Source: Cytophagales bacterium
GTDB taxonomy: Bacteria > Bacteroidota > Bacteroidia > Cytophagales > Cyclobacteriaceae
Length of the DNA: 64,000 nucleotides
NCBI GenBank assembly: GCA_025359125.1
Contig: JANYHI010000068.1
Span: 62,001 to 126,000 of the forward strand
Direction: 5' to 3'
Every line of letters starts with the position of its first letter. The stretch's first letter is position 1. The position numbers and the translations under genes are program-made. This document shows, one piece after another, positions 5,810 to 21,287 of this stretch. The notes under the pieces are model-generated. The model had not been told where the DNA came from. It was given only the letters and a program-made list of their open reading frames with translations, and searched no databases.

Positions 5810-8359
5810 TTAGTCGTATAAGTCTTTCCACAAATCCTTCTCTTTCTTGTCGTAACGAGGGCGCCTTACTTTTTCTTTTACGGCTGTGGGCTGCACATCG
5901 TTCTTCTTAAAGAGTTTAGACCACAACAACTTAACATTGGTTAAAATGGTTCGTTCTTTTTTTACGTTATCAATATGCCCATGAGCAAATTTTGCATCGG
6001 GATGCAATTTGCTTCCATGAGGTTTACTCATCTTTAAGTTGCCCTGGTAATTATTTATTTTAGCATAGGCACGGCCGGGGGCAATCACCATTAATGCTTC
6101 TTTGTTGCTTCTAGGATTGTGTCTGTAATTTCTGGTTAATCTGGCTCTACCCTGAAACTCATTGCCTCTATTAAATGCTCGGTTGGGACTGATAGTTTTA
6201 AGAGCATCTTTGGAACTACTTGGGTTAGATGAGTAGCTCCAAAGCATTTTCATTTTCCCTTCATACTCGCTTGCTTTAACGGTTGCTGATTTTGGGCCGA
6301 TTGCATAGATAGCTCCAACTTTAGCATTAGGGTTCTTCTGGTATTTCCCTTGCTTGACCTTAATTTGTAATCCGTTTACTAAAAAAGTATTGTTGCTTGG
6401 GCTTTTCTTCTTGGTAGAGTTTTCGTTAGCGTTGGGGTTTTGTGTGTAGCTATTAAAGCGTTTCAATTTTATTTTGCCTCCAAATCCCAAACCCGGATAA
6501 TCTTTTTCTGCCTTACCTGGAATAGGCTCTTCTTTGTTATTCCATAATTTTCCGCTTACACTTCCTCCACCCTTTAGAGGTTTTCGTCCCTTTATAAAAC
6601 CTCTAAACTCTTCACCTTGATCGCGATAAGCATCAAACCCTTTCGGTTTTTTTAAATTTCCTGTATAAGTACCGGCTCTTGCCGAACGGGCAGGAGGAAG
6701 CTTTACGGCAATAGCATTACCGCTATTATTTCTTGACCTACCGCTAATACTACCGCCTCCCTTAATAGGTCTTTGAGCCTTAATGAATCCTTTAAATTCT
6801 TCACCTTGGTCATTGTAATTAAAAATAGAATTAGCTTTTAAATTACCGCTGTAAGTACCGGCTCTTGCCGAACGAGCGGGAGGAATACGAGCACTGATTG
6901 GATTTCCTTTATTGTTTTTTAAAAGGCCGCTAATGCTTCCGCCACCTTTAAGCGGTCTTCTTGATTTGCTAAATCCTTTAAACTCCTCACCTTGATCTCG
7001 GTAACGAGAAGCTGAAGACTTTAAATTTCCACTAAAGGTGCCAGCCCTAGCAGACCGTGCTGGAGGAGTTCTTACAAAAACTGGATTGCCACTATTATTT
7101 TTTAATCGGCCACTAATACTTCCTCCACCTTTCGAAAGTCGACCTCCTTTTATATTTCCTGCCCATCCAATTCCCTGCCTAGTAAACCCGGGAGAAAGTT
7201 GGTTGCGCTTTATGTCGCCCTTATAACTTGCAACAGCACTACCAAAAATAGTTTTTGCCTTCATAGAACCTCTAAACCCAATACCCTGGTGCTGAAAAGA
7301 TGGACTTAGCTGATTCCTTTTAAAGTTTCCTTTATAACTGGCAATACCTCCACCACCTAATGGAATTTTAACAGGGATTGGCCTATTATTTTTTGCTTGG
7401 CCGCTAATCGATTGAAAGCCATTACCGCGCGCGCGATTTTTTCTTTTTCCACTTATTGATAATTTCCGCGGAAAAAATTTTACGCCTGCCTTTATGTTAT
7501 TTTTTGAACTGATAGATAATTTTCTTGGATAGAAAAGCCTGCCTATTATTTGAGTGTTTCTTAGTTTACTTTTTCTAATTGGTTTGCCAGAAATGCCCAA
7601 TGAAGTTGCCCTTTCGCCCCTATTTGAAGCACTATTAAATCCAGATCTGAATGTTCCTTTATAAGATTTGTCACCACCATTTCGATTTCCAGAATAGGGG
7701 TTGGTTTGATTAATTAAGCCTGTAGATGGCGTTCTAAAATTTTTTGTTCTAAGCGGTCTTCCCGTTATGTCTTTTGTGAATGCTTTTTCTCCTTTAGAGA
7801 ATTTTCCCCAATACACATTTTTTCTACCTCTTGTTATGAATGAGCGAGATCCAGATCTTGGATTGATTCTTCTTTTTTTAGGGTATGGAGAAGCGTTTGA
7901 TTTTACGCTATAAAGAACTGGCTGCCCGATCGGTGCTGGGTTGTTAAATGAACGTTCGGATTTTCGGGGTCGCTTAGCGGGGTTGTTAACATACGGGCCT
8001 TTATTTGGGTAAACGTTGTTTCTGGCTGCTTGTGCTGACGAAGACTGAATTCTTGGCCTGCCACCAATTGGTTTGGATGGTCTATCCCCGCCTCTCGATC
8101 GTCTACCTTCATAGGGAGATCTGGCGGTTACAACGGCTCGCCCCGCACTTGATTTATTTTTTGTCCTTAATCGCCTTCCAGAAATATCTCGTGTATTTGA
8201 TTTAACTGTTTTACTTCTGCCTGGCTTGGCTTTTAAAGTAATTCTAGGAAGAGGCTTAGAGGGCTTATCGCCCTTGGTATTTTGAGCAAAAGAGATATTT
8301 CCTGCAATGATCAGGATCAATGCCGCTACTAAAATCCTAACCGATTTTGTCCTCGTCAA
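5810..8359 (-). CDS. Large secreted, strongly basic Gly/Ser/Arg/Lys repeat protein, function unknown
   Basis: I cannot place this 849-residue protein in a named family. It starts with a signal peptide (hydrophobic core VRILVAALILIIAGN, cleavage near SFAQ). The mature chain is very rich in Arg, Lys, Gly, Ser and Asn and almost lacks hydrophobic stretches. Several repeat types can be read: DISGRRLRTKN and DITGRPLRTKN near the N-terminus; RKLSIS pairs; SYKGNFKRNQLSPSF pairs; three units of 61-63 residues beginning GGGSISG and containing PPARSARAGT and DQGEEFKGF; then NPxSxKEAL-type repeats. The C-terminus is highly charged (RRPRYDKKEKDLWKDLYD), with no type IX sorting domain that I recognise. 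It shares an operon with ytxJ. A structural, matrix or polyanion-binding role is possible but speculative. Confidence 0.8.
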   Translation of the reverse strand: MTRTKSVRILVAALILIIAGNISFAQNTKGDKPSKPLPRITLKAKPGRSKTVKSNTRDISGRRLRTKNKSSAGRAVVTARSPYEGRRSRGGDRPSKPIGGRPRIQSSSAQAARNNVYPNKGPYVNNPAKRPRKSERSFNNPAPIGQPVLYSVKSNASPYPKKRRINPRSGSRSFITRGRKNVYWGKFSKGEKAFTKDITGRPLRTKNFRTPSTGLINQTNPYSGNRNGGDKSYKGTFRSGFNSASNRGERATSLGISGKPIRKSKLRNTQIIGRLFYPRKLSISSKNNIKAGVKFFPRKLSISGKRKNRARGNGFQSISGQAKNNRPIPVKIPLGGGGIASYKGNFKRNQLSPSFQHQGIGFRGSMKAKTIFGSAVASYKGDIKRNQLSPGFTRQGIGWAGNIKGGRLSKGGGSISGRLKNNSGNPVFVRTPPARSARAGTFSGNLKSSASRYRDQGEEFKGFSKSRRPLKGGGSISGLLKNNKGNPISARIPPARSARAGTYSGNLKANSIFNYNDQGEEFKGFIKAQRPIKGGGSISGRSRNNSGNAIAVKLPPARSARAGTYTGNLKKPKGFDAYRDQGEEFRGFIKGRKPLKGGGSVSGKLWNNKEEPIPGKAEKDYPGLGFGGKIKLKRFNSYTQNPNANENSTKKKSPSNNTFLVNGLQIKVKQGKYQKNPNAKVGAIYAIGPKSATVKASEYEGKMKMLWSYSSNPSSSKDALKTISPNRAFNRGNEFQGRARLTRNYRHNPRSNKEALMVIAPGRAYAKINNYQGNLKMSKPHGSKLHPDAKFAHGHIDNVKKERTILTNVKLLWSKLFKKNDVQPTAVKEKVRRPRYDKKEKDLWKDLYD
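6572..7129 (-). repeat. Tandem coding repeats, three units of 61, 62 and 63 codons
   Basis: Inside the basic repeat protein, units begin with GGGSISG at 7129, 6946 and 6760, and a fourth, divergent unit begins at 6571. Shared landmarks are NN-x-GNP/A, PPARSARAGT, SGNLK or TGNLK, and DQGEEFKGF or DQGEEFRGF. The spacing of 183, 186 and 189 nt keeps the frame. The units are conserved at protein level more than a free-running repeat would need, which suggests selection on the repeated motif. Confidence 0.85.
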
Positions 8360-8469: not shown

Positions 8470-8775
8470 ATGACTTTATCAGAATTTGAATTAATACTTC
8501 AAGAAAATAGGCCGCCCGATGGGCTAACTCCGTGTTTAAAGGCCTTGTGGTTTGATGCGATGGAAAATTGGCAGCGTGCACACGAAATTGTTCAAGAGAT
8601 AGAAACGAAAGAAGGAAGTTGGATGCATGCCTATCTACACAGAAAAGAAGGCGATGAATCCAATGCAAGGTATTGGTATAACAGAGCAAGTAAAAAATTT
8701 CCAACTTCTGATTTACAAGAAGAATGGAAACAGCTTGCTGTTTACTTCCTTGAAAAGACTGAGAAAGAATCCTAG
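8470..8775 (+). CDS. Small conserved protein of unknown function (HAYLHRKEGD type)
   Basis: A 101-residue soluble protein. The centre has AHEIVQEIETKEGSWMHAYL followed by HRKEGDESNARYWYNRA, a block I recognise as recurring in short uncharacterised proteins of several bacterial phyla; I know of no assigned function. The pattern, two helices followed by N-A-x-Y-W-Y-x-R-A, resembles a single TPR-like hairpin. There is no signal peptide or membrane segment. The gene is divergent from the repeat protein and convergent with the E1 gene, whose end it overlaps by 4 nt. The first ATG in the frame was taken as the start. Confidence 0.75.
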   Translation: MTLSEFELILQENRPPDGLTPCLKALWFDAMENWQRAHEIVQEIETKEGSWMHAYLHRKEGDESNARYWYNRASKKFPTSDLQEEWKQLAVYFLEKTEKES

Positions 8776-10751
8776 TATTTCAGTAACTCCTCAATTTTTG
8801 ATTTTAATCTTCCTTTTGGTAAAAAATTATTTTCTAACGTTGGCGCAAATGGAATAGCTGTGTCTAAACTTGCAACCCGCATAATGGGTGCATCTAAATC
8901 AGAAAATAAATTTTCATTTATCCAGGCACAGAGTTCAGCGCCAATGCCCCCGGTTAAAGTATCTTCGTGGAGAATCAAAACCCTGTTTGTTTTTTTTACA
9001 GTTTGGGTTACCGCTTCTTTATCCCACGGAAGCAATGTTCTCAAGTCTAAGACATCTGCGCTTACATCGGGCATAGCTTCTAATATTTCTTTAGCCCAAT
9101 GCACTCCCATGCCATAGGTAATAATTGAAATCGAGTTGCCTTCGCTCACTAAGTTTGCTTTTCCGATTTCTACGGTATAATAATCGTCTGGTATCTCGTC
9201 TTTAACGGATCGGTATAATACCTTGTGTTCAAAATATAAATACGGATTTGGATCTTCTAGAGCAGCACACAAAAGTCCTTTTGCATCATACGGATTTGAG
9301 GGATAGACAATCTTTAATCCGGGCGTATGAAAAAACCATGCTTCATTACTTTGCGAGTGAAACGGGCCTGCGGCAGTACCCGCTCCCGTTGGCATCCGAA
9401 CTACAACATCAGCCACTTGCCCCCAGCGCCAATGAGTCTTTGCTAAATTATTTATAATCTGATTAAAGCCTTCGGTTACAAAATCAGCAAACTGCATTTC
9501 CACCATTGCCTTCATTCCTTTTATGGAGAGCCCCAGCCCAGTGCCAACTATTGCGGCCTCACATAGCGGAGTATTTCTTACTCGCTCTTTTCCAAACTTT
9601 TCAACAAAGCCATCGGTAATTTTAAATACGCCACCATATTCAGCAATGTCTTGCCCCATCAACACTAGATTATCGTGCCTGTCCATACTTTGACGCAGGC
9701 CATCGCTAATGGCATCTATAAATCTTTTTTCTGATTTCTTATTGGAAGTTGGCTCAACAATATTTTGAATGGAAGGCGCATACACATCATTCAATTCAGT
9801 TTGGGTATTTGCTACAGGATGGGTTTCCTCAAAGGCAACATCCAAACCATCTTCGATTTCTTTTTTTATTTTCTTTCGGATTGAGTCTATGAATTTTTGA
9901 TCGATAACCTTTTCAGAAACTAAAAACTTTTCGTAGTTATCGAGTGGATCTTTTTTAGCCCACTCGTCCATCAATTTTTTAGGAACATATTTAGTGCCAC
10001 TGGCTTCTTCGTGGCCACGCATACGGAACGTGATGCACTCTAATAAAATTGGCCGCGGAGTTTTTCGTAAACTTTCTGCCAGTGATTTCACTGTATCAAA
10101 CACTTCTAAAATATTATTTCCATCTACCTGCACGCCTTCTATTCCATACCCGATTGCTTTATCGATAAACTGTTTGCATCTGAATTGTTCGCTGCTTGGA
10201 GTGCTCAGTCCATAACCATTATTTTCAATCACAAAAATGACAGGCAAGTCCCAAACGGCCGCCACATTTAATGCTTCATGAAAATCTCCCTGACTTGTGC
10301 CTCCATCGCCATTAAAAACAACGGTAACTTTATTTTCTTTTTTTAGTTTGGAGGCTAGGGCAATTCCATCGGCTACGCCATTTTGTGGGCCGAGGTGAGA
10401 AATCATTCCAACGATATGATGTTCATTAGTGCCAAAGTGAAAAGAACGATCTCTGCCTTTGGTGTAGCCACTCATGGTGCCTTGCCATTGTGCGAATAGT
10501 TTTTCAAAAGGAATATCTCGCCCTGTGAAAACCCCAAGGTTACGATGCATCGGTAAAATATATTCGTCTTTATCTAGGGCGGCAGTGATTCCTACCGAGA
10601 TAGCTTCTTGCCCGATGCCGCTAAACCATTTGCTGATTTTATTTTGCCGAAGAAGAATCAACATCTTCTCTTCAATCATGCGAGGCTTCAAAAGGCGCTC
10701 ATACAAATTTTGAAGAGTTTGGTCAGTATTTTTTTTGCGGAGGAATTTCAT
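8772..10751 (-). CDS. 2-oxoacid dehydrogenase E1 component, alpha and beta subunits fused
   Basis: The thiamine-diphosphate E1 enzyme decarboxylates a 2-oxoacid and passes the acyl group to the lipoyl E2. The 659-residue chain joins an alpha-type domain (about 15-325) to a beta-type domain (about 342-659). The ThDP motif is intact: GDG at 148-150 and NN at 177-178 (VIENNGYGLST). The beta half has GQDIAEYGGVFKITDGF, EMQFADF and the transketolase C-terminal region (LILHEDTLTGGIG). Fused chains of this length are usual in Bacteroidota and are often annotated as branched-chain 2-oxoisovalerate dehydrogenase, but pyruvate or another 2-oxoacid cannot be excluded. No E2 or E3 is adjacent. It has its own promoter at 10769-10796. 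Confidence 0.9.
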   Translation of the reverse strand: MKFLRKKNTDQTLQNLYERLLKPRMIEEKMLILLRQNKISKWFSGIGQEAISVGITAALDKDEYILPMHRNLGVFTGRDIPFEKLFAQWQGTMSGYTKGRDRSFHFGTNEHHIVGMISHLGPQNGVADGIALASKLKKENKVTVVFNGDGGTSQGDFHEALNVAAVWDLPVIFVIENNGYGLSTPSSEQFRCKQFIDKAIGYGIEGVQVDGNNILEVFDTVKSLAESLRKTPRPILLECITFRMRGHEEASGTKYVPKKLMDEWAKKDPLDNYEKFLVSEKVIDQKFIDSIRKKIKKEIEDGLDVAFEETHPVANTQTELNDVYAPSIQNIVEPTSNKKSEKRFIDAISDGLRQSMDRHDNLVLMGQDIAEYGGVFKITDGFVEKFGKERVRNTPLCEAAIVGTGLGLSIKGMKAMVEMQFADFVTEGFNQIINNLAKTHWRWGQVADVVVRMPTGAGTAAGPFHSQSNEAWFFHTPGLKIVYPSNPYDAKGLLCAALEDPNPYLYFEHKVLYRSVKDEIPDDYYTVEIGKANLVSEGNSISIITYGMGVHWAKEILEAMPDVSADVLDLRTLLPWDKEAVTQTVKKTNRVLILHEDTLTGGIGAELCAWINENLFSDLDAPIMRVASLDTAIPFAPTLENNFLPKGRLKSKIEELLKY

Positions 10752-10823: not shown

Positions 10824-11831
10824 TTAAGCAGCCTTCTCTTTCACCAACTCTAAATCCGGCTTACTTTCGTCTGTCAATTTTACTTTCCCTCTTTCGTTGC
10901 GGGTAACGCGCGAGTAAAGTGAAATATTTTTATCGAATAAAAACCGGAAGAAAAGTTTTGTCCACGATTGGTGGGATTTTAATGTTTCGTAATAGCCAGA
11001 TGCTTGTTTCTTTACTAGAGGTAATCTGTTCCAGGGTACGGAAGGAAAATCATGATGCTCATTATGATAGCCAACATTAAAAGCTAGCGAGTTTAAGGGG
11101 CCGTAGTAGCTGTATGTTTCTTGATTTTCATCTAGTGTGAGATAATGTTCCTGAATCCATCTCGCGCCAAGCGGATGAAGACCTACAGAAAAGAAAAAAC
11201 TCAATAGCATAAAAATCAAAGCCTTGGGGCCGATGAATACCCAAACTGCAATGTTAAATGCAATTTGAACTATCCAGTTAGCAACAATCCAACCATCAAC
11301 GGGTTTAATTTCCGTCAACCGAAAAGTTCTGATCACTTGAAACACTGGAAAGAGTAACAACCAAATGGCTTTACCCAATGTTGTATTCCGGATGACTTTG
11401 GCTTCCCAAAAATCCGGCAAGTCGGCATCTAATTCATGCACACCCTGAAAAGAGTGATGTTTAATGTGGTATCTAAAAAATGAAATTGCGCTCGGTAGTG
11501 TGTGTGGCAAGTTGGCAATAATGCCAGCAATGTAATTAGCGGCTCTACTTTTGAAAAGCAGGTGATGAGAGCATTCGTGTATCATTACAAACAAAGCATG
11601 ATTAAAAAATGCTCCGATCACATAAGCAATTACGATAACCATCCACCAGGCACTGTCTTTCAATAAATAAGAAATCAAAATCATTCCACCAACCAATCCA
11701 AAAATTGCTAAAAGTGTGAGCGGATTTTTGCCCATCAGTTGTTTCACCTCAGGATGTTGAGACATAATCTCCTTCATGCGGATGCGATGTGGTTCTGAGG
11801 TATCGGAGAAACGGAACGAATCAGTGGTCAT
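10824..11831 (-). CDS. Membrane desaturase resembling sphingolipid delta-4 (dihydroceramide) desaturase
   Basis: A 335-residue di-iron membrane desaturase. The three histidine boxes are HECSHH (85-90), HIKHH (122-126) and HNEHH (256-260), set among four to six membrane segments. Beyond the boxes it matches eukaryotic DES1/DEGS proteins: an N-terminal SEPHRIRMKEIMSQHPEVK, then HHSFQGVHELDADLP, GLHPLGARWIQEHY, ETYSYYGPLN, FNVGYHNEHHDFP, LPLVKKQASGYYETL and a closing SLYSRVTR. These agree in order and spacing with DES1, which introduces the 4,5 double bond into dihydroceramide. I infer a role in sphingolipid or long-chain lipid desaturation, fitting the sphingolipids made by many Cytophagales; the true substrate is untested. 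A TATCTTTG -7 box sits at 11851-11858, upstream of the ATG. Confidence 0.88.
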   Translation of the reverse strand: MTTDSFRFSDTSEPHRIRMKEIMSQHPEVKQLMGKNPLTLLAIFGLVGGMILISYLLKDSAWWMVIVIAYVIGAFFNHALFVMIHECSHHLLFKSRAANYIAGIIANLPHTLPSAISFFRYHIKHHSFQGVHELDADLPDFWEAKVIRNTTLGKAIWLLLFPVFQVIRTFRLTEIKPVDGWIVANWIVQIAFNIAVWVFIGPKALIFMLLSFFFSVGLHPLGARWIQEHYLTLDENQETYSYYGPLNSLAFNVGYHNEHHDFPSVPWNRLPLVKKQASGYYETLKSHQSWTKLFFRFLFDKNISLYSRVTRNERGKVKLTDESKPDLELVKEKAA

Positions 11832-11944
11832 AAATTCAATAATAAGATTACAAAGATACTTACTTTTTGTTCTTAACAGACTTTGTAAACTTATGTTTTC
11901 CTATGTCGGGGTAATCCAAAAACTAACCTTATTTTTGGTGCGAT

Positions 11945-18152: not shown

Positions 18153-21100
18153 TTAGTCTACTACTTTTTTTTCTGCGCTACTAAATAGCGAATCTATTTT
18201 TGATTGCAAATTAATAGTGAAATACAATGCTGTTACTATTTTACAATACTGGCCGGGGTCTTCCATCACTCTTCCCTTTCTGTCTTTTAAATATTTTTCA
18301 AGCACTTGGTAGCCGCCAATGTGATAGTTCCATATTTCGGGAGCAATGCCTTCGAAATAATTTTTATCGTTGATGAATACAATTTGTTTCTCTTCATCAT
18401 ACTTTGGTTTCACTACACTATCATCGCCCTTGCCTTTGTATTTGGCTACGGGTTTGTTAAGCGCTTTGTGTTTTAATAAATGGAGTTCGGTTAATTCTTC
18501 ACCTAATTTGGCGAGTTCAATAAAAAGTTTGTAATCGCTGGTAAAGGGTATGCGCGGAAAATCAATCTTCAAAAACTCGGCAAATTTTTTACGATAGGTA
18601 TTGCTGTAAAGAATAGCATAGATGTAATGCAGCAACTGCTCTGGTGTAAACTTCTTTTTGTATGCCTTCTCTAAATTTGCTAGAACCTCTTTGCTGATGT
18701 TGGGTACTCTTCCTTTACTATCATATTCCATCTCTGGCTCGAAGAGCATCATGGTTGGGGTCTTGCGTTTGCTTTCAGTTTTATAGAGGTAGAGAGGTAG
18801 CGCTACAATACCTCCGCGATAAAAAGCATTTACGTCAGCGATACTATCTGTAATGAAAGCTAAATTCCAAAGATGTTCATTCCCTACAACTTGCCCTTGC
18901 CTTCCAACAGTTATTGCTAAATTATCTTTTAAGAGATGTTGCATAACATCCCTTCGAGACCGATCAATTAAATCATCGGAATACACTATTATTCTTGTAT
19001 CAAATGGTCGATAGTGTATTGCATTAAATTTTTCAAAAATATTCTTGTCTTCAGAGACTTGTTTCCTAGCATCAGATATACTCCATGTCTCGGAGTTATC
19101 GAGTCCATATGCATCCTTGATGAAATCGTCAGGAAATTTCAAATTACTAAACTGTCTAACTTTTTGCTCCAATTCACTTGCTTTAAAGGCAATCACAAAT
19201 TGATCCCTATGAGTTTTAATCCCAGAAGAATTAAGTGGGAATATTTCAGTAATTCTTGGCCAAGAATTAAAATACTTCAAGCCCTCTTCATTTCGATTAA
19301 TAAAAATATACCAAGGAGACTCAGGCTTTAGCGATGAATAATCTTTCTTTTTGAATTCTTGTTTTTCCAGCCAATCATATTTCTCTTCCCGAGTTCCATA
19401 GATATCGCGATAAACAACTTTGCAACTCTTGGCCCCTTTTCTCTTAATAAAAATAGCAATGGCTGTACCTTGTCGAATGTCAAATACGTTTTCGTCTTTT
19501 CCACCTTCTGGTGTAGTTTCTTTCTTCAAACCATTTCCATGCAAATCAATAATGTAAATTTCATTAAAGGTATTCATCAAACTCTGGCGCATTCCTCTAA
19601 ACGTAGGATTATCGAGGTAGCTGTGATTGGTAATCATACCTACTATACCGTGACCTGCTTTATGTATTTTCCATTGAGAGAATCGAAGGAACTTCACATA
19701 GTCATCTTGCAGTAATTTTGAATTACGCTCTCCTAAAGGTTTTCCATCAATTTTATAATACGAAGTTGCTCCATCAAGGTCTTCTTTTAAAAGTCTTTCT
19801 GTCCATGCATTATAGTTTGACGAGTTTGCAGAATAGGGAGGATTGCCTATAATCACCAATATCGGTTCGCTCTTTTTTATTTGTCCTGCTTTGTGGCTTT
19901 CATCGCTTAAACTTTCCAGGCCGGGTATTTCGGTCTGGGCGAGGTCTTCCATATCGAGTGTGTTGGTAAGAAATAAATTGAAGCGATCTTCTTCACGCAT
20001 TTTATAGCCCAACTCTTCCAGCAAGAAACTAATCTTAATATGCCCAATGGCATAGGGTGCCATCATTAACTCAAAAGCATAGTAGTGTTTTAAAATATGA
20101 TTTTGAAAAAACTGGTTCAGGCCTCCATCGCCATATTTGCTTGTAAATTCTTGCACGGCAAGTTTAATGGCTTCGGCCGGGAAGGTAAGTGTGCCACCGG
20201 CCGGGTCGAGCAGCGTTACTTCTTTGCTGGCCAAACCATCTTGCAAATTGAAATGTGTTTTCAGCAAATCGTGTATGGCGCGCACAATGTATTTTACTAC
20301 CGGCTCAGGCGTATAATACACTCCGCGTTTTTCGCGCGTGGCCGGATCGTAAATGTTTAGAAACGTTTCATAAAAATGCACGATCGGATCTTCGCCTTTA
20401 CCTTTGCGATAATATTCGTGCAAGATGTTGCTTACTTCGGCAGCCTGCAATACTTCGGCAATGTCATCAATGATTACCTCCATTTGCAGCGGCAGTTTGC
20501 CCAACGATATAAACTGAAACACATCGCGCAAAATACCGATGGTGGGAGGTATTAAATCAAAAGCAAGTTTTCTGTTGAAGGTTCCGTTGGCGCGCGTTCG
20601 TGCAGCAAACAGACCATACGTAATGGTTTGTGAATAGATGTCGGCAAAGGCTTCTTCTTTTAAATCGGCAATCAAGTATTTTTTAAAAGCTTGGTAGAAA
20701 CCGTAGATAGGTCCTTTGCCTTTTTCTTCTTCTTCCAGTTCTTTTGAAATTACTTCATCGCGCAGGAAGCGTGTTCTCTTTGCTAATTCCTGCGCCAGTG
20801 TTTCGGCAGAAAATACTTTCGGTAAAGAGAAAGAAAAGAATTTGTTAAGCAGCGAATGAAATTTCTCTTCGTTCTCAACAGGAGGAATTACTTTTAATTT
20901 CTTGGCAATGAAAGGTCGGCCAATCAATACCTTATCAACTAACTGACCATTGCGATACAACCTGAATTCGTAAAAGTCTGTGAGAATAAGATTTGGAAAA
21001 ACGCTACGATAGCGTTTAAGCTGTTCAGCGTTTTCAATCACATCTAGATTCTCGCCCGGCTTTTTAGCTTCTATGTATCCAACAATTTGTTGTTTGCCAT

Positions 21101-21287
21101 CCCACACACGGAAGTCGGGGTTACCAGCTTCGGTCTTTTTGGGGAGCGTAGTGATTTGTATTTTCTTTTTGCCAATGCTATCGGCAAAAGTTTCCAAAAA
21201 AGAATAGAGCTGGCCGTAATAGCTTTCTTCGCGAGCATCGCCAAGAGAAGTGGTAGCAGCGATTTTTTTTAAATATTCGTGTGTCAT
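18153..21287 (-). CDS. Single-chain restriction-modification enzyme, type ISP/IIG-like N6-adenine methyltransferase
   Basis: A 1044-residue defence enzyme with cutting, methylation and recognition in one chain. The N-terminal PD-(D/E)xK nuclease has D58 in GNPDFRVW and E73-x-K75 in GYIEAKKPG. A helical linker follows. The N6-adenine methyltransferase has GVYYTPEPVVKYIV (motif X), DPAGG at 361-365 (motif I) and NPPY at 482-485 (motif IV). The C-terminal half resembles the type ISP specificity domain (HYRPFDTRI, DRSRRDVMQHL, NLAITVGRQGQVVGNEHL). The helicase domain of classical type ISP enzymes such as LlaBIII is absent, so it behaves architecturally like a type IIG enzyme. No separate subunits or other defence genes are adjacent. 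The target sequence cannot be predicted. Confidence 0.88.
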   Translation of the reverse strand: MTHEYLKKIAATTSLGDAREESYYGQLYSFLETFADSIGKKKIQITTLPKKTEAGNPDFRVWDGKQQIVGYIEAKKPGENLDVIENAEQLKRYRSVFPNLILTDFYEFRLYRNGQLVDKVLIGRPFIAKKLKVIPPVENEEKFHSLLNKFFSFSLPKVFSAETLAQELAKRTRFLRDEVISKELEEEEKGKGPIYGFYQAFKKYLIADLKEEAFADIYSQTITYGLFAARTRANGTFNRKLAFDLIPPTIGILRDVFQFISLGKLPLQMEVIIDDIAEVLQAAEVSNILHEYYRKGKGEDPIVHFYETFLNIYDPATREKRGVYYTPEPVVKYIVRAIHDLLKTHFNLQDGLASKEVTLLDPAGGTLTFPAEAIKLAVQEFTSKYGDGGLNQFFQNHILKHYYAFELMMAPYAIGHIKISFLLEELGYKMREEDRFNLFLTNTLDMEDLAQTEIPGLESLSDESHKAGQIKKSEPILVIIGNPPYSANSSNYNAWTERLLKEDLDGATSYYKIDGKPLGERNSKLLQDDYVKFLRFSQWKIHKAGHGIVGMITNHSYLDNPTFRGMRQSLMNTFNEIYIIDLHGNGLKKETTPEGGKDENVFDIRQGTAIAIFIKRKGAKSCKVVYRDIYGTREEKYDWLEKQEFKKKDYSSLKPESPWYIFINRNEEGLKYFNSWPRITEIFPLNSSGIKTHRDQFVIAFKASELEQKVRQFSNLKFPDDFIKDAYGLDNSETWSISDARKQVSEDKNIFEKFNAIHYRPFDTRIIVYSDDLIDRSRRDVMQHLLKDNLAITVGRQGQVVGNEHLWNLAFITDSIADVNAFYRGGIVALPLYLYKTESKRKTPTMMLFEPEMEYDSKGRVPNISKEVLANLEKAYKKKFTPEQLLHYIYAILYSNTYRKKFAEFLKIDFPRIPFTSDYKLFIELAKLGEELTELHLLKHKALNKPVAKYKGKGDDSVVKPKYDEEKQIVFINDKNYFEGIAPEIWNYHIGGYQVLEKYLKDRKGRVMEDPGQYCKIVTALYFTINLQSKIDSLFSSAEKKVVD

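What the first reader, a model, noticed from the sequence alone, without database searches (positions are those of the whole stretch)
10824..11831. Bacterial desaturase with whole-length similarity to sphingolipid delta-4 desaturase (DES1)
Not only the His boxes but the intervening and terminal motifs (QGVHELDADLP, HPLGARWIQEHY, ETYSYYGPLN, FNVGYHNEHHDFP, closing YSRVTR) follow DES1 in order and spacing. Delta-4 desaturation of the sphingoid base is regarded as a eukaryotic trait. The first box is HECSHH instead of the HE(L/I)(S/A)HN of DES1. A bacterial enzyme making unsaturated sphingoid bases or a related lipid would be of interest for lipid evolution and host signalling.
Basis: partly seen in the sequence, partly recalled or inferred. 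Interest (0 to 1): 0.7.

Follow-up and report, generated by a model that had tools for sequence, protein, structure and literature searches.

The report
Bacterial sphingolipid-type delta-4 desaturase gene
A bacterium carries a close relative of the enzyme that eukaryotes use to put the signature double bond into sphingolipids, and its relatives often keep such genes together with sphingolipid-making genes, which suggests that some bacteria make this supposedly eukaryotic lipid feature, here perhaps on a sulfur-containing sphingolipid look-alike.

Summary
Observation confirmed: window 10824-11831, minus strand, 335 aa, has FA_desaturase plus the DES-specific N-terminal Pfam domain Lipid_DES and is about 42% identical over 311-317 aa to two eukaryotic DES proteins (typed from recall). 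Its family occurs in 40 of 395 sampled Bacteroidota genomes; the recalled eukaryotic DES join it with strong support.

Context supports a long-chain-base role. In the window's taxonomic family, DES co-occurs with serine palmitoyltransferase (SPT): 22 of 24 DES+ genomes against 20 of 172 DES-. In 9 genomes a sister-clade DES lies 6-14 kb from SPT, beside putative ceramide genes and, in some, inositol-phosphate (6 of 9) and aminoethylphosphonate (5 of 9) genes.

But the window's genome is one of the two exceptions: no SPT was found; its remaining condensing-enzyme candidate matches cysteate acyltransferase (SulA/CFAT), with the diagnostic Lys281. So its likely substrate is a sulfonolipid (N-acyl-capnine).

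Delta-4 desaturation against C4-hydroxylation, and the substrate, remain inferred. Nine literature searches listed no paper on a bacterial DES, judged by titles, abstract openings and some passages. New variant of a known kind.

The parts
10824..11831 (-). DES-family desaturase CDS, 335 aa (clade A)
   Evidence: ORF; Pfam; trees; AlphaFold2 model mean pLDDT 86.5, pTM 0.86
11721..11825 (-). DES N-terminal domain Lipid_DES PF08557, residues 3-37
   Evidence: 48.4 bits, cut-off 23
11562..11579 (-). His box 1 HECSHH, H85 and H89
   Evidence: sequence; H85 and H89 invariant in 37 sequences
11454..11468 (-). His box 2 HIKHH, residues 122-126
11145..11177 (-). clade signature HPLGARWIQEH, residues 219-229 (clade B and recalled eukaryotes read HPxxGHFxxEH)
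11052..11066 (-). His box 3 HNEHH, residues 256-260
8772..10751 (-). downstream neighbour: fused 2-oxoacid dehydrogenase E1 (alpha plus beta), 72 bp after the desaturase; not shown to be part of the system
   Evidence: a homologue 83-91% identical lies downstream of DES on the same strand in 13 of 80 related loci, all close relatives

Best explanation
The gene encodes a membrane di-iron desaturase of the DES (dihydroceramide/sphingolipid delta-4 desaturase) family. It most likely uses O2 and two electrons to take hydrogen from C4-C5 of the long-chain base of a ceramide-like lipid, giving a 4-ene next to the C3 hydroxyl. In DES-bearing relatives of its family the base comes from serine palmitoyltransferase in 22 of 24 genomes. 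In this genome it would have to come from cysteate fatty-acyltransferase, so the product would be a 4-unsaturated sulfonolipid (N-acyl-capnine). Shown here by sequence: family membership, conserved His boxes, the SPT link across the window's taxonomic family, no SPT found and a SulA/CFAT match present in this genome. Inferred: catalysis, delta-4 regiochemistry, the substrate, the electron donor.
For: Lipid_DES and FA_desaturase domains (37 of 37 aligned proteins). Recalled fly and Arabidopsis DES: 41.6-41.8% identity over 311-317 aa; none of the 5 other PF00487 proteins of this genome aligns at full length with the window protein or with them. Trees join the recalled eukaryotic DES to bacterial clade B at 100/100 and 100/99. 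In the window's family SPT is in 22 of 24 DES+ against 20 of 172 DES- genomes, Fisher p=1.6e-15; by genus 11 of 11 against 9 of 73. DES lies 6-14 kb from SPT in 9 genomes, all 9 with GNAT acyltransferase, SDR and FabA-like genes nearby, 8 with an epimerase, 6 with CDP-alcohol transferase and inositol-phosphate synthase, 5 with aminoethylphosphonate genes (by BLAST clusters; families named on L217, L219, L220 and L225). Own genome: SulA 7U7H 571 bits, CFAT 28eh 554, SPT 3a2b 226; Lys281 equivalent present, Ala in 5 of 5 SPT-type proteins. 7 of 40 DES+ genomes of the phylum sample have CFAT but no SPT-like enzyme. Model confident; Foldseek PDB hits include AlkB (8sbb, E=6.7e-4) and, weaker, human stearoyl-CoA desaturase (4zyo, E=0.01).
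Against: The window's gene stands alone: no SPT- or CFAT-like protein in the flanks of 80 loci (up to 5 kb) or in 20 fetched regions of about 12-14 kb (the script recovered DES in 19 of 20, the 20th was found). Close SPT linkage was seen only in clade B. In the 6 SPT+ clade A genomes of the family compared, SPT is on another contig (4, drafts) or more than 1 Mb away (2). At phylum level co-occurrence is uninformative: 40 of 40 DES+ but 381 of 395 overall have CFAT or an SPT-like enzyme. No cytochrome b5 match in this genome, the donor recalled for eukaryotic DES. No lipid data. The DES family is close to C4-hydroxylases (PMC8318264, passage). Genomes of one family are not independent.
Confidence: 0.6

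Rival explanations
1. Same family, but the enzyme is a C4-hydroxylase, or bifunctional like mammalian DES2 (recalled), giving phyto-type (4-hydroxy) capnine or sphingoid bases instead of a double bond.
For: The close relation of the two activities is discussed in PMC8318264 (passage). No residue examined here separates the two.
Against: Nothing direct. The bacterial family keeps most near-invariant columns of the two recalled eukaryotic DES (59 of 74), which are plain desaturases by recall.
Confidence: 0.18
2. The substrate in this organism is still a true dihydroceramide: SPT sits in an assembly gap, or dihydroceramides or their bases are taken up from neighbours.
For: In the family DES goes with SPT (22 of 24); congeners G483 and G569 have both. 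The genome is a draft of 87 contigs.
Against: Completeness is given as 100, and same-genus G146 (10 contigs, completeness 100) shows the same DES+ SPT- pattern.
Confidence: 0.12
3. It is an ordinary acyl-lipid or acyl-CoA desaturase, or a fatty-acyl hydroxylase (Caulobacter CC_0202 is a DesA-family enzyme proposed to hydroxylate the amide-linked acyl chain), that only resembles DES.
For: FA_desaturase domain; weak NCBIfam hits to CrtW and DesA, 31 bits or less. CC_0202 in PMC11324152 (passage).
Against: DES-specific N-terminal domain; that domain was found in 0 of 14 control genomes, which include Caulobacter vibrioides (named); no full-length similarity to the other desaturases of this genome.
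Confidence: 0.06
4. A relic: SPT was lost in this lineage and the desaturase is drifting without a substrate.
For: Two of the five genomes of this genus listed keep DES without SPT.
Against: His boxes and invariant columns intact; full-length ORFs 77-88% identical in near relatives. No dN/dS test was run.
Confidence: 0.05

Closest known systems
Eukaryotic sphingolipid delta-4 desaturase DES1/DEGS1, fly ifc, plant DES (Pfam PF08557 + PF00487)
   Same: Both Pfam domains in order, three His boxes, ETYSYYGPLN and (N/S)VGYHNEHHDFP, length, about 42% full-length identity (two recalled sequences)
   Different: Bacterial; clade A signature GARWIQEH instead of GHFxxEH; no cytochrome b5 match in the genome; no SPT found in the genome, CFAT instead
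Clade B bacterial DES in SPT clusters, same taxonomic family (e.g. L217 14011-14931, L225 13032-13955)
   Same: Same two Pfam domains; same family in the tree
   Different: 38-44% identical to the window protein in the six compared; closer to the recalled eukaryotic DES; in 9 genomes near SPT and ceramide-type genes
Caulobacter CC_0202, DesA-family desaturase/hydroxylase proposed to act on the sphingolipid acyl chain (PMC11324152, passage)
   Same: Membrane desaturase/hydroxylase superfamily, lipid of the ceramide type
   Different: Proposed to act on the amide-linked acyl chain; Caulobacter vibrioides, a control genome, has no PF08557 match
SulA/CFAT-dependent sulfonolipid pathway (Alistipes finegoldii, PDB 7U7H; PMC9304779, passages)
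   Same: The own genome has a 571-bit match with the diagnostic Lys
   Different: The word desaturase does not occur in that paper's main text; here a DES-type gene is added to the predicted pathway by inference

Membership tests
DES (sphingolipid delta-4 desaturase) protein family | N-terminal Lipid_DES domain PF08557 over the curated cut-off | tested here: met
   48.4 bits, cut-off 23; 37 of 37 aligned proteins match at E<=0.001
DES (sphingolipid delta-4 desaturase) protein family | FA_desaturase domain with three His boxes HX3H, HX2HH, HX2HH | tested here: met
   H85, H89, H122, H125, H126, H256, H259, H260 invariant in 37 sequences
DES (sphingolipid delta-4 desaturase) protein family | groups with eukaryotic DES, apart from other desaturases | tested here: met
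   caveat: the two eukaryotic sequences were typed from recall, outgroup branches are saturated and the root is uncertain
DES (sphingolipid delta-4 desaturase) protein family | makes a 4-ene in a sphingoid base | not testable with these tools
   needs enzyme assay or lipidomics
DES (sphingolipid delta-4 desaturase) protein family | host genome makes sphingoid bases (SPT) | tested here: not met
   no SPT at the curated cut-off or at E<=1e-150 in G000; concerns the substrate, not family membership. Met at E<=1e-150 in 22 of 24 DES+ genomes of the taxonomic family
Sulfonolipid (capnine) pathway in the same genome | cysteate acyltransferase SulA/CFAT with Lys281 | tested here: met
Sulfonolipid (capnine) pathway in the same genome | cysteate synthase, 3-ketocapnine reductase, N-acyltransferase | not tested
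   no specific models were run
Bifunctional DES2-type C4-hydroxylase | C4-hydroxylating activity | not testable with these tools
   no residue rule could be sourced
Ordinary desaturases and hydroxylases (CrtW, DesA, DesB, GntB, CrtR models of NCBIfam) | score over the curated cut-off | tested here: not met
   best 31.1 bits (CrtW) against cut-off 350

The most novel reading that the evidence does not exclude
Bacteroidota have their own delta-4 desaturation of long-chain bases, on SPT-derived ceramides in relatives with SPT and on sulfonolipids in SPT-less genomes like this one. Eukaryotic DES sits inside or beside this bacterial diversity (with clade B), so the sphingosine double bond may have moved between bacteria and early eukaryotes, possibly from bacteria. 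In some clade B clusters it would go with inositol and aminoethylphosphonate head-groups.
Probability: 0.35. Interest if true: 0.85.

Novelty: new variant of a known kind. Interest (0 to 1): 0.62.

Why it matters
Delta-4 unsaturation separates ceramide from dihydroceramide, a difference that matters for signalling in animals (recalled). A 2025 introduction still explains the simplicity of bacterial sphingolipids by absent desaturases, while its own LC-MS assigns a d18:1 ceramide to a Sphingobacterium (PMC12724326, passages). A genetically defined bacterial DES family would (a) make the origin of the sphingosine double bond testable, (b) explain and predict unsaturated bacterial ceramides and sulfonolipids, the lipid class that includes the choanoflagellate rosette-inducing factor RIF-1 (PMC3463246, passages), and (c) warn that ceramide found with Bacteroidota need not come from the host.

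Tried and rejected
Idea: the clade A signature GARW (an Arg where eukaryotes have His) recognises the sulfonate. Rejected: SPT-only genomes have it too, and clade B genomes carry CFAT as well.

Idea: an operon with the downstream E1 dehydrogenase that feeds branched acyl primers. Not supported: a close E1 homologue (83-91% identical) lies downstream of DES in 13 of 80 loci, all in near relatives, in some with a gap of about 1-2 kb.

Idea: viral or phage carriage (algal-virus sphingolipid genes, recalled). Viral contigs: none for the protein query; one chance match to an ETYSYYGP pattern inside a phage-like contig. Phages: none. Plasmids: one 25% hit in Anabaena. BFVD structure hits at E<=0.001 are six giant-virus proteins, mostly named desaturases, 13-15% identity.

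Phylum-level co-occurrence of DES with any long-chain-base synthase: uninformative, because 381 of 395 genomes have one (counted by hand from the tables with E<=1e-100 as the line for both enzymes). Class level, same counting, 98 genomes: SPT in 8 of 15 DES+ against 9 of 83 DES- (Fisher p=5e-4).

The SPT label for families f17, f24, f35 and f43 is weaker: for the one scanned (L168) the best NCBIfam model is SPT, below its cut-off, and the DES+ genomes of these families score 477-526 bits against the cut-off of 640. In one search, 8 of 40 DES+ genomes pass the cut-off, 14 of 23 (22 DES+ and one DES-).

Full report
What is there. The finding is a complete 335-aa CDS on the minus strand (11831 to 10824). 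It carries Lipid_DES (PF08557, residues 3-37, E=6.4e-13) and FA_desaturase (PF00487, residues 62-281, E=5.1e-26) over their cut-offs. NCBIfam names nothing near a cut-off; no PDB sequence matches at E<=1. The AlphaFold2 model from 37 aligned sequences has mean pLDDT 86.5 and pTM 0.86. Foldseek finds weak but sensible PDB matches: two chloroplast FtsHi-complex chains first (E=3.4e-5 and 1.4e-4), then AlkB (6.7e-4 and 1.1e-3), then human stearoyl-CoA desaturase (0.01); the next listed hit is at E=0.99.

A real family. PF08557 occurs in 40 of 395 sampled Bacteroidota genomes, all 40 over cut-off, and in 0 of 14 control genomes; in the window's own family in 24 of 196. 579 loci in genome contigs encode relatives; the best 80 were kept and are 62-88% identical. 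The 8 His-box histidines are invariant in 37 aligned sequences. The residue after the first box varies freely, so HECSHH is not diagnostic.

Comparison with eukaryotes. They match the window protein at 41.6-41.8% over 311-317 aa, and the protein L021 of an f24 genome at 50-51% over 309-311 aa, which suggests that the recall is usable. In the first tree (58 rows) they sit with L021-L024 inside the bacterial DES at 100/100; the five own-genome paralogs and one cyanobacterial desaturase are extremely long branches. With 15 more proteins of the taxonomic family and no outgroup (67 rows), two bacterial clades appear: A (HPxG[A/G]RW[I/V]QEH; window, Chitinophagaceae, f17 and f35 genomes) and B (HPxxGHFxxEH; f24 genomes and several genera of the window's own family); the recalled eukaryotic DES lie with clade B at 100/99. 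The program warns of long branches meeting, among them the two eukaryotic rows; the root is uncertain, so the direction of any transfer is open.

Genome context of the pathway. In the own genome 20 PF00155 proteins were found. Three are of the alpha-oxoamine synthase type. L003 is a glycine C-acetyltransferase over cut-off (708 bits against 493). L006 scores best to bioF (361 bits, below its cut-off). The third (P0001, L009) matches A. finegoldii SulA (7U7H) at 571 bits and a cysteate acyltransferase (28eh) at 554, against 226 for SPT; NCBIfam has no model over cut-off for it. The JBC paper on SulA gives Lys281 as a possible marker that tells sulfonolipid from sphingolipid condensing enzymes (PMC9304779, passages); P0001 has Lys 30 residues after the PLP lysine, and the five SPT-type proteins compared have Ala (of 30 CFAT loci scored in the same script, one the own copy, 28 gave Lys and two could not be parsed). 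The best score to the NCBIfam SPT model in this genome is 334.8 bits, cut-off 640. So the genome looks like a sulfonolipid maker without sphingolipids. The other sulfonolipid genes were not tested.

Link to sphingolipid synthesis. In 196 genomes of the window's family, SPT (NF047600, E<=1e-150; 21 of them over its cut-off) is in 42 and DES in 24; 22 genomes have both (recount 107). That is 22 of 24 against 20 of 172 (Fisher p=1.6e-15); by genus 11 of 11 against 9 of 73. Relatedness inflates these p-values, and I take the two 196-genome samples as the same draw. The two DES+ genomes without SPT are the window's own and its congener G146; congeners G483 and G569 have both, and G549 has neither. 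All three of these last congeners, and 22 of the 23 genomes checked, have CFAT; the miss, G444, is 82% complete.

Clusters. In nine genomes of the family (G421, G425, G428, G441, G489, G492, G527, G546, G551) DES lies 5.7-14.3 kb from SPT. All nine are clade B by tree or BLAST. Of four further clade B genomes examined, two (G476, G540) have SPT on another contig and two (G459, G512) more than 2 Mb away; G561 was not examined. Of six SPT+ clade A genomes compared, four (G399, G444, G483, G545) have SPT on another contig of a draft and two (G523, G548) more than 1 Mb away. The annotated cluster L217 (G425) reads: inositol-3-phosphate synthase, NTP transferase, SPT (604.5 bits, just below the cut-off of 640), NAD-dependent epimerase, GNAT acyltransferase, SDR, FabA-like, beta-ketoacyl synthase, CDP-alcohol phosphatidyltransferase, DES, PLD-like, GT4 glycosyltransferase, 2-aminoethylphosphonate aminotransferase (over cut-off, 378.6 against 360.8) and a phosphonopyruvate-decarboxylase match (277 bits, cut-off 312.5) at the edge of the fetched stretch. 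By BLAST cluster the GNAT, SDR, FabA-like and glycosyltransferase genes are near SPT and DES in 9 of the 9 genomes, the epimerase in 8, a beta-ketoacyl synthase in 7, inositol-phosphate synthase and CDP-alcohol transferase in 6, aminoethylphosphonate genes in 5. G551 adds PEP mutase (over cut-off). A dehydrogenase (CerR) and an N-acyltransferase (CerS) make ceramide in Caulobacter (PMC11324152, passage), so the epimerase and the GNAT protein are plausible equivalents, by analogy only. I read this as a ceramide cluster, in part of the genomes with inositol and aminoethylphosphonate head-group genes, into which a DES is built.

How it most likely works here. Membrane di-iron desaturase; O2-dependent C4-C5 dehydrogenation of the long-chain base of an N-acyl lipid. 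In this genome the only predicted base is capnine, giving 4-unsaturated sulfonolipid. Flavocristamide A as a natural 4-unsaturated sulfonolipid is my recollection and was not verified in the passages read. No cytochrome b5 match was found, so the electron donor probably differs from the eukaryotic one (recalled). C4-hydroxylation is the main rival.

What speaks against. No physical link of the window's gene to sphingolipid or sulfonolipid genes; close SPT linkage was seen only in the sister clade; phylum-level co-occurrence is uninformative; no chemistry.

Novelty. Nine full-text searches listed no paper on a bacterial DES; they cover only the open-licence library, and I judged them by titles, abstract openings and passages of 14 papers. 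The tenth (cluster terms) was not followed up. One introduction puts the simplicity of bacterial sphingolipids down to absent desaturases, yet the same paper reports ceramide d18:1/24:1 by LC-MS in Sphingobacterium detergens and cites it for B. thetaiotaomicron (PMC12724326, passages), so unsaturated-base ceramides in Bacteroidota are already claimed in print, without a gene in the passages seen. The enzyme family itself is known and Pfam names it; the bacterial branch, its SPT clusters and a sulfonolipid substrate are the new part.

Noticed in passing
L216, L217, L218, L219, L220-L221 (full set); L222-L225 (part of it): Clusters in the window's taxonomic family that put SPT, DES, an epimerase, a GNAT acyltransferase, a CDP-alcohol transferase, inositol-phosphate synthase and aminoethylphosphonate genes side by side: they look like a sphingophosphonolipid or inositol-phosphoceramide pathway with built-in delta-4 desaturation.
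   Followed up: partly
L225 14119-14988 and 14996-15949: Two further ORFs of 290 and 318 aa directly beside the clade B DES; the first is an FA_desaturase protein without a Lipid_DES match and the second fell in the same BLAST cluster. Possible acyl-chain desaturase or hydroxylase partners.
   Followed up: no
G551:C10:866368-884481 (L220, L221): Two SPT-type genes flank the DES about 16 kb apart, each with its own GNAT acyltransferase gene.
   Followed up: no
window 11851-11858 (-): TATCTTTG, 19 bases before the ATG of the desaturase, fits the Bacteroidota -7 promoter motif TAnnTTTG (motif recalled; sequence), so the gene may have its own promoter.
   Followed up: no
window 5810-8359 (-): 849-aa basic, repetitive protein (TTG start as listed) with no Pfam or NCBIfam match at E<=1e-5; similar ORFs within the flanks of DES in 10 of 80 related loci.
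   Followed up: no
window 18153-21287 (-): Single-chain Type ISP restriction-modification protein, 1044 aa (Type_ISP_C, N6_Mtase).
   Followed up: no
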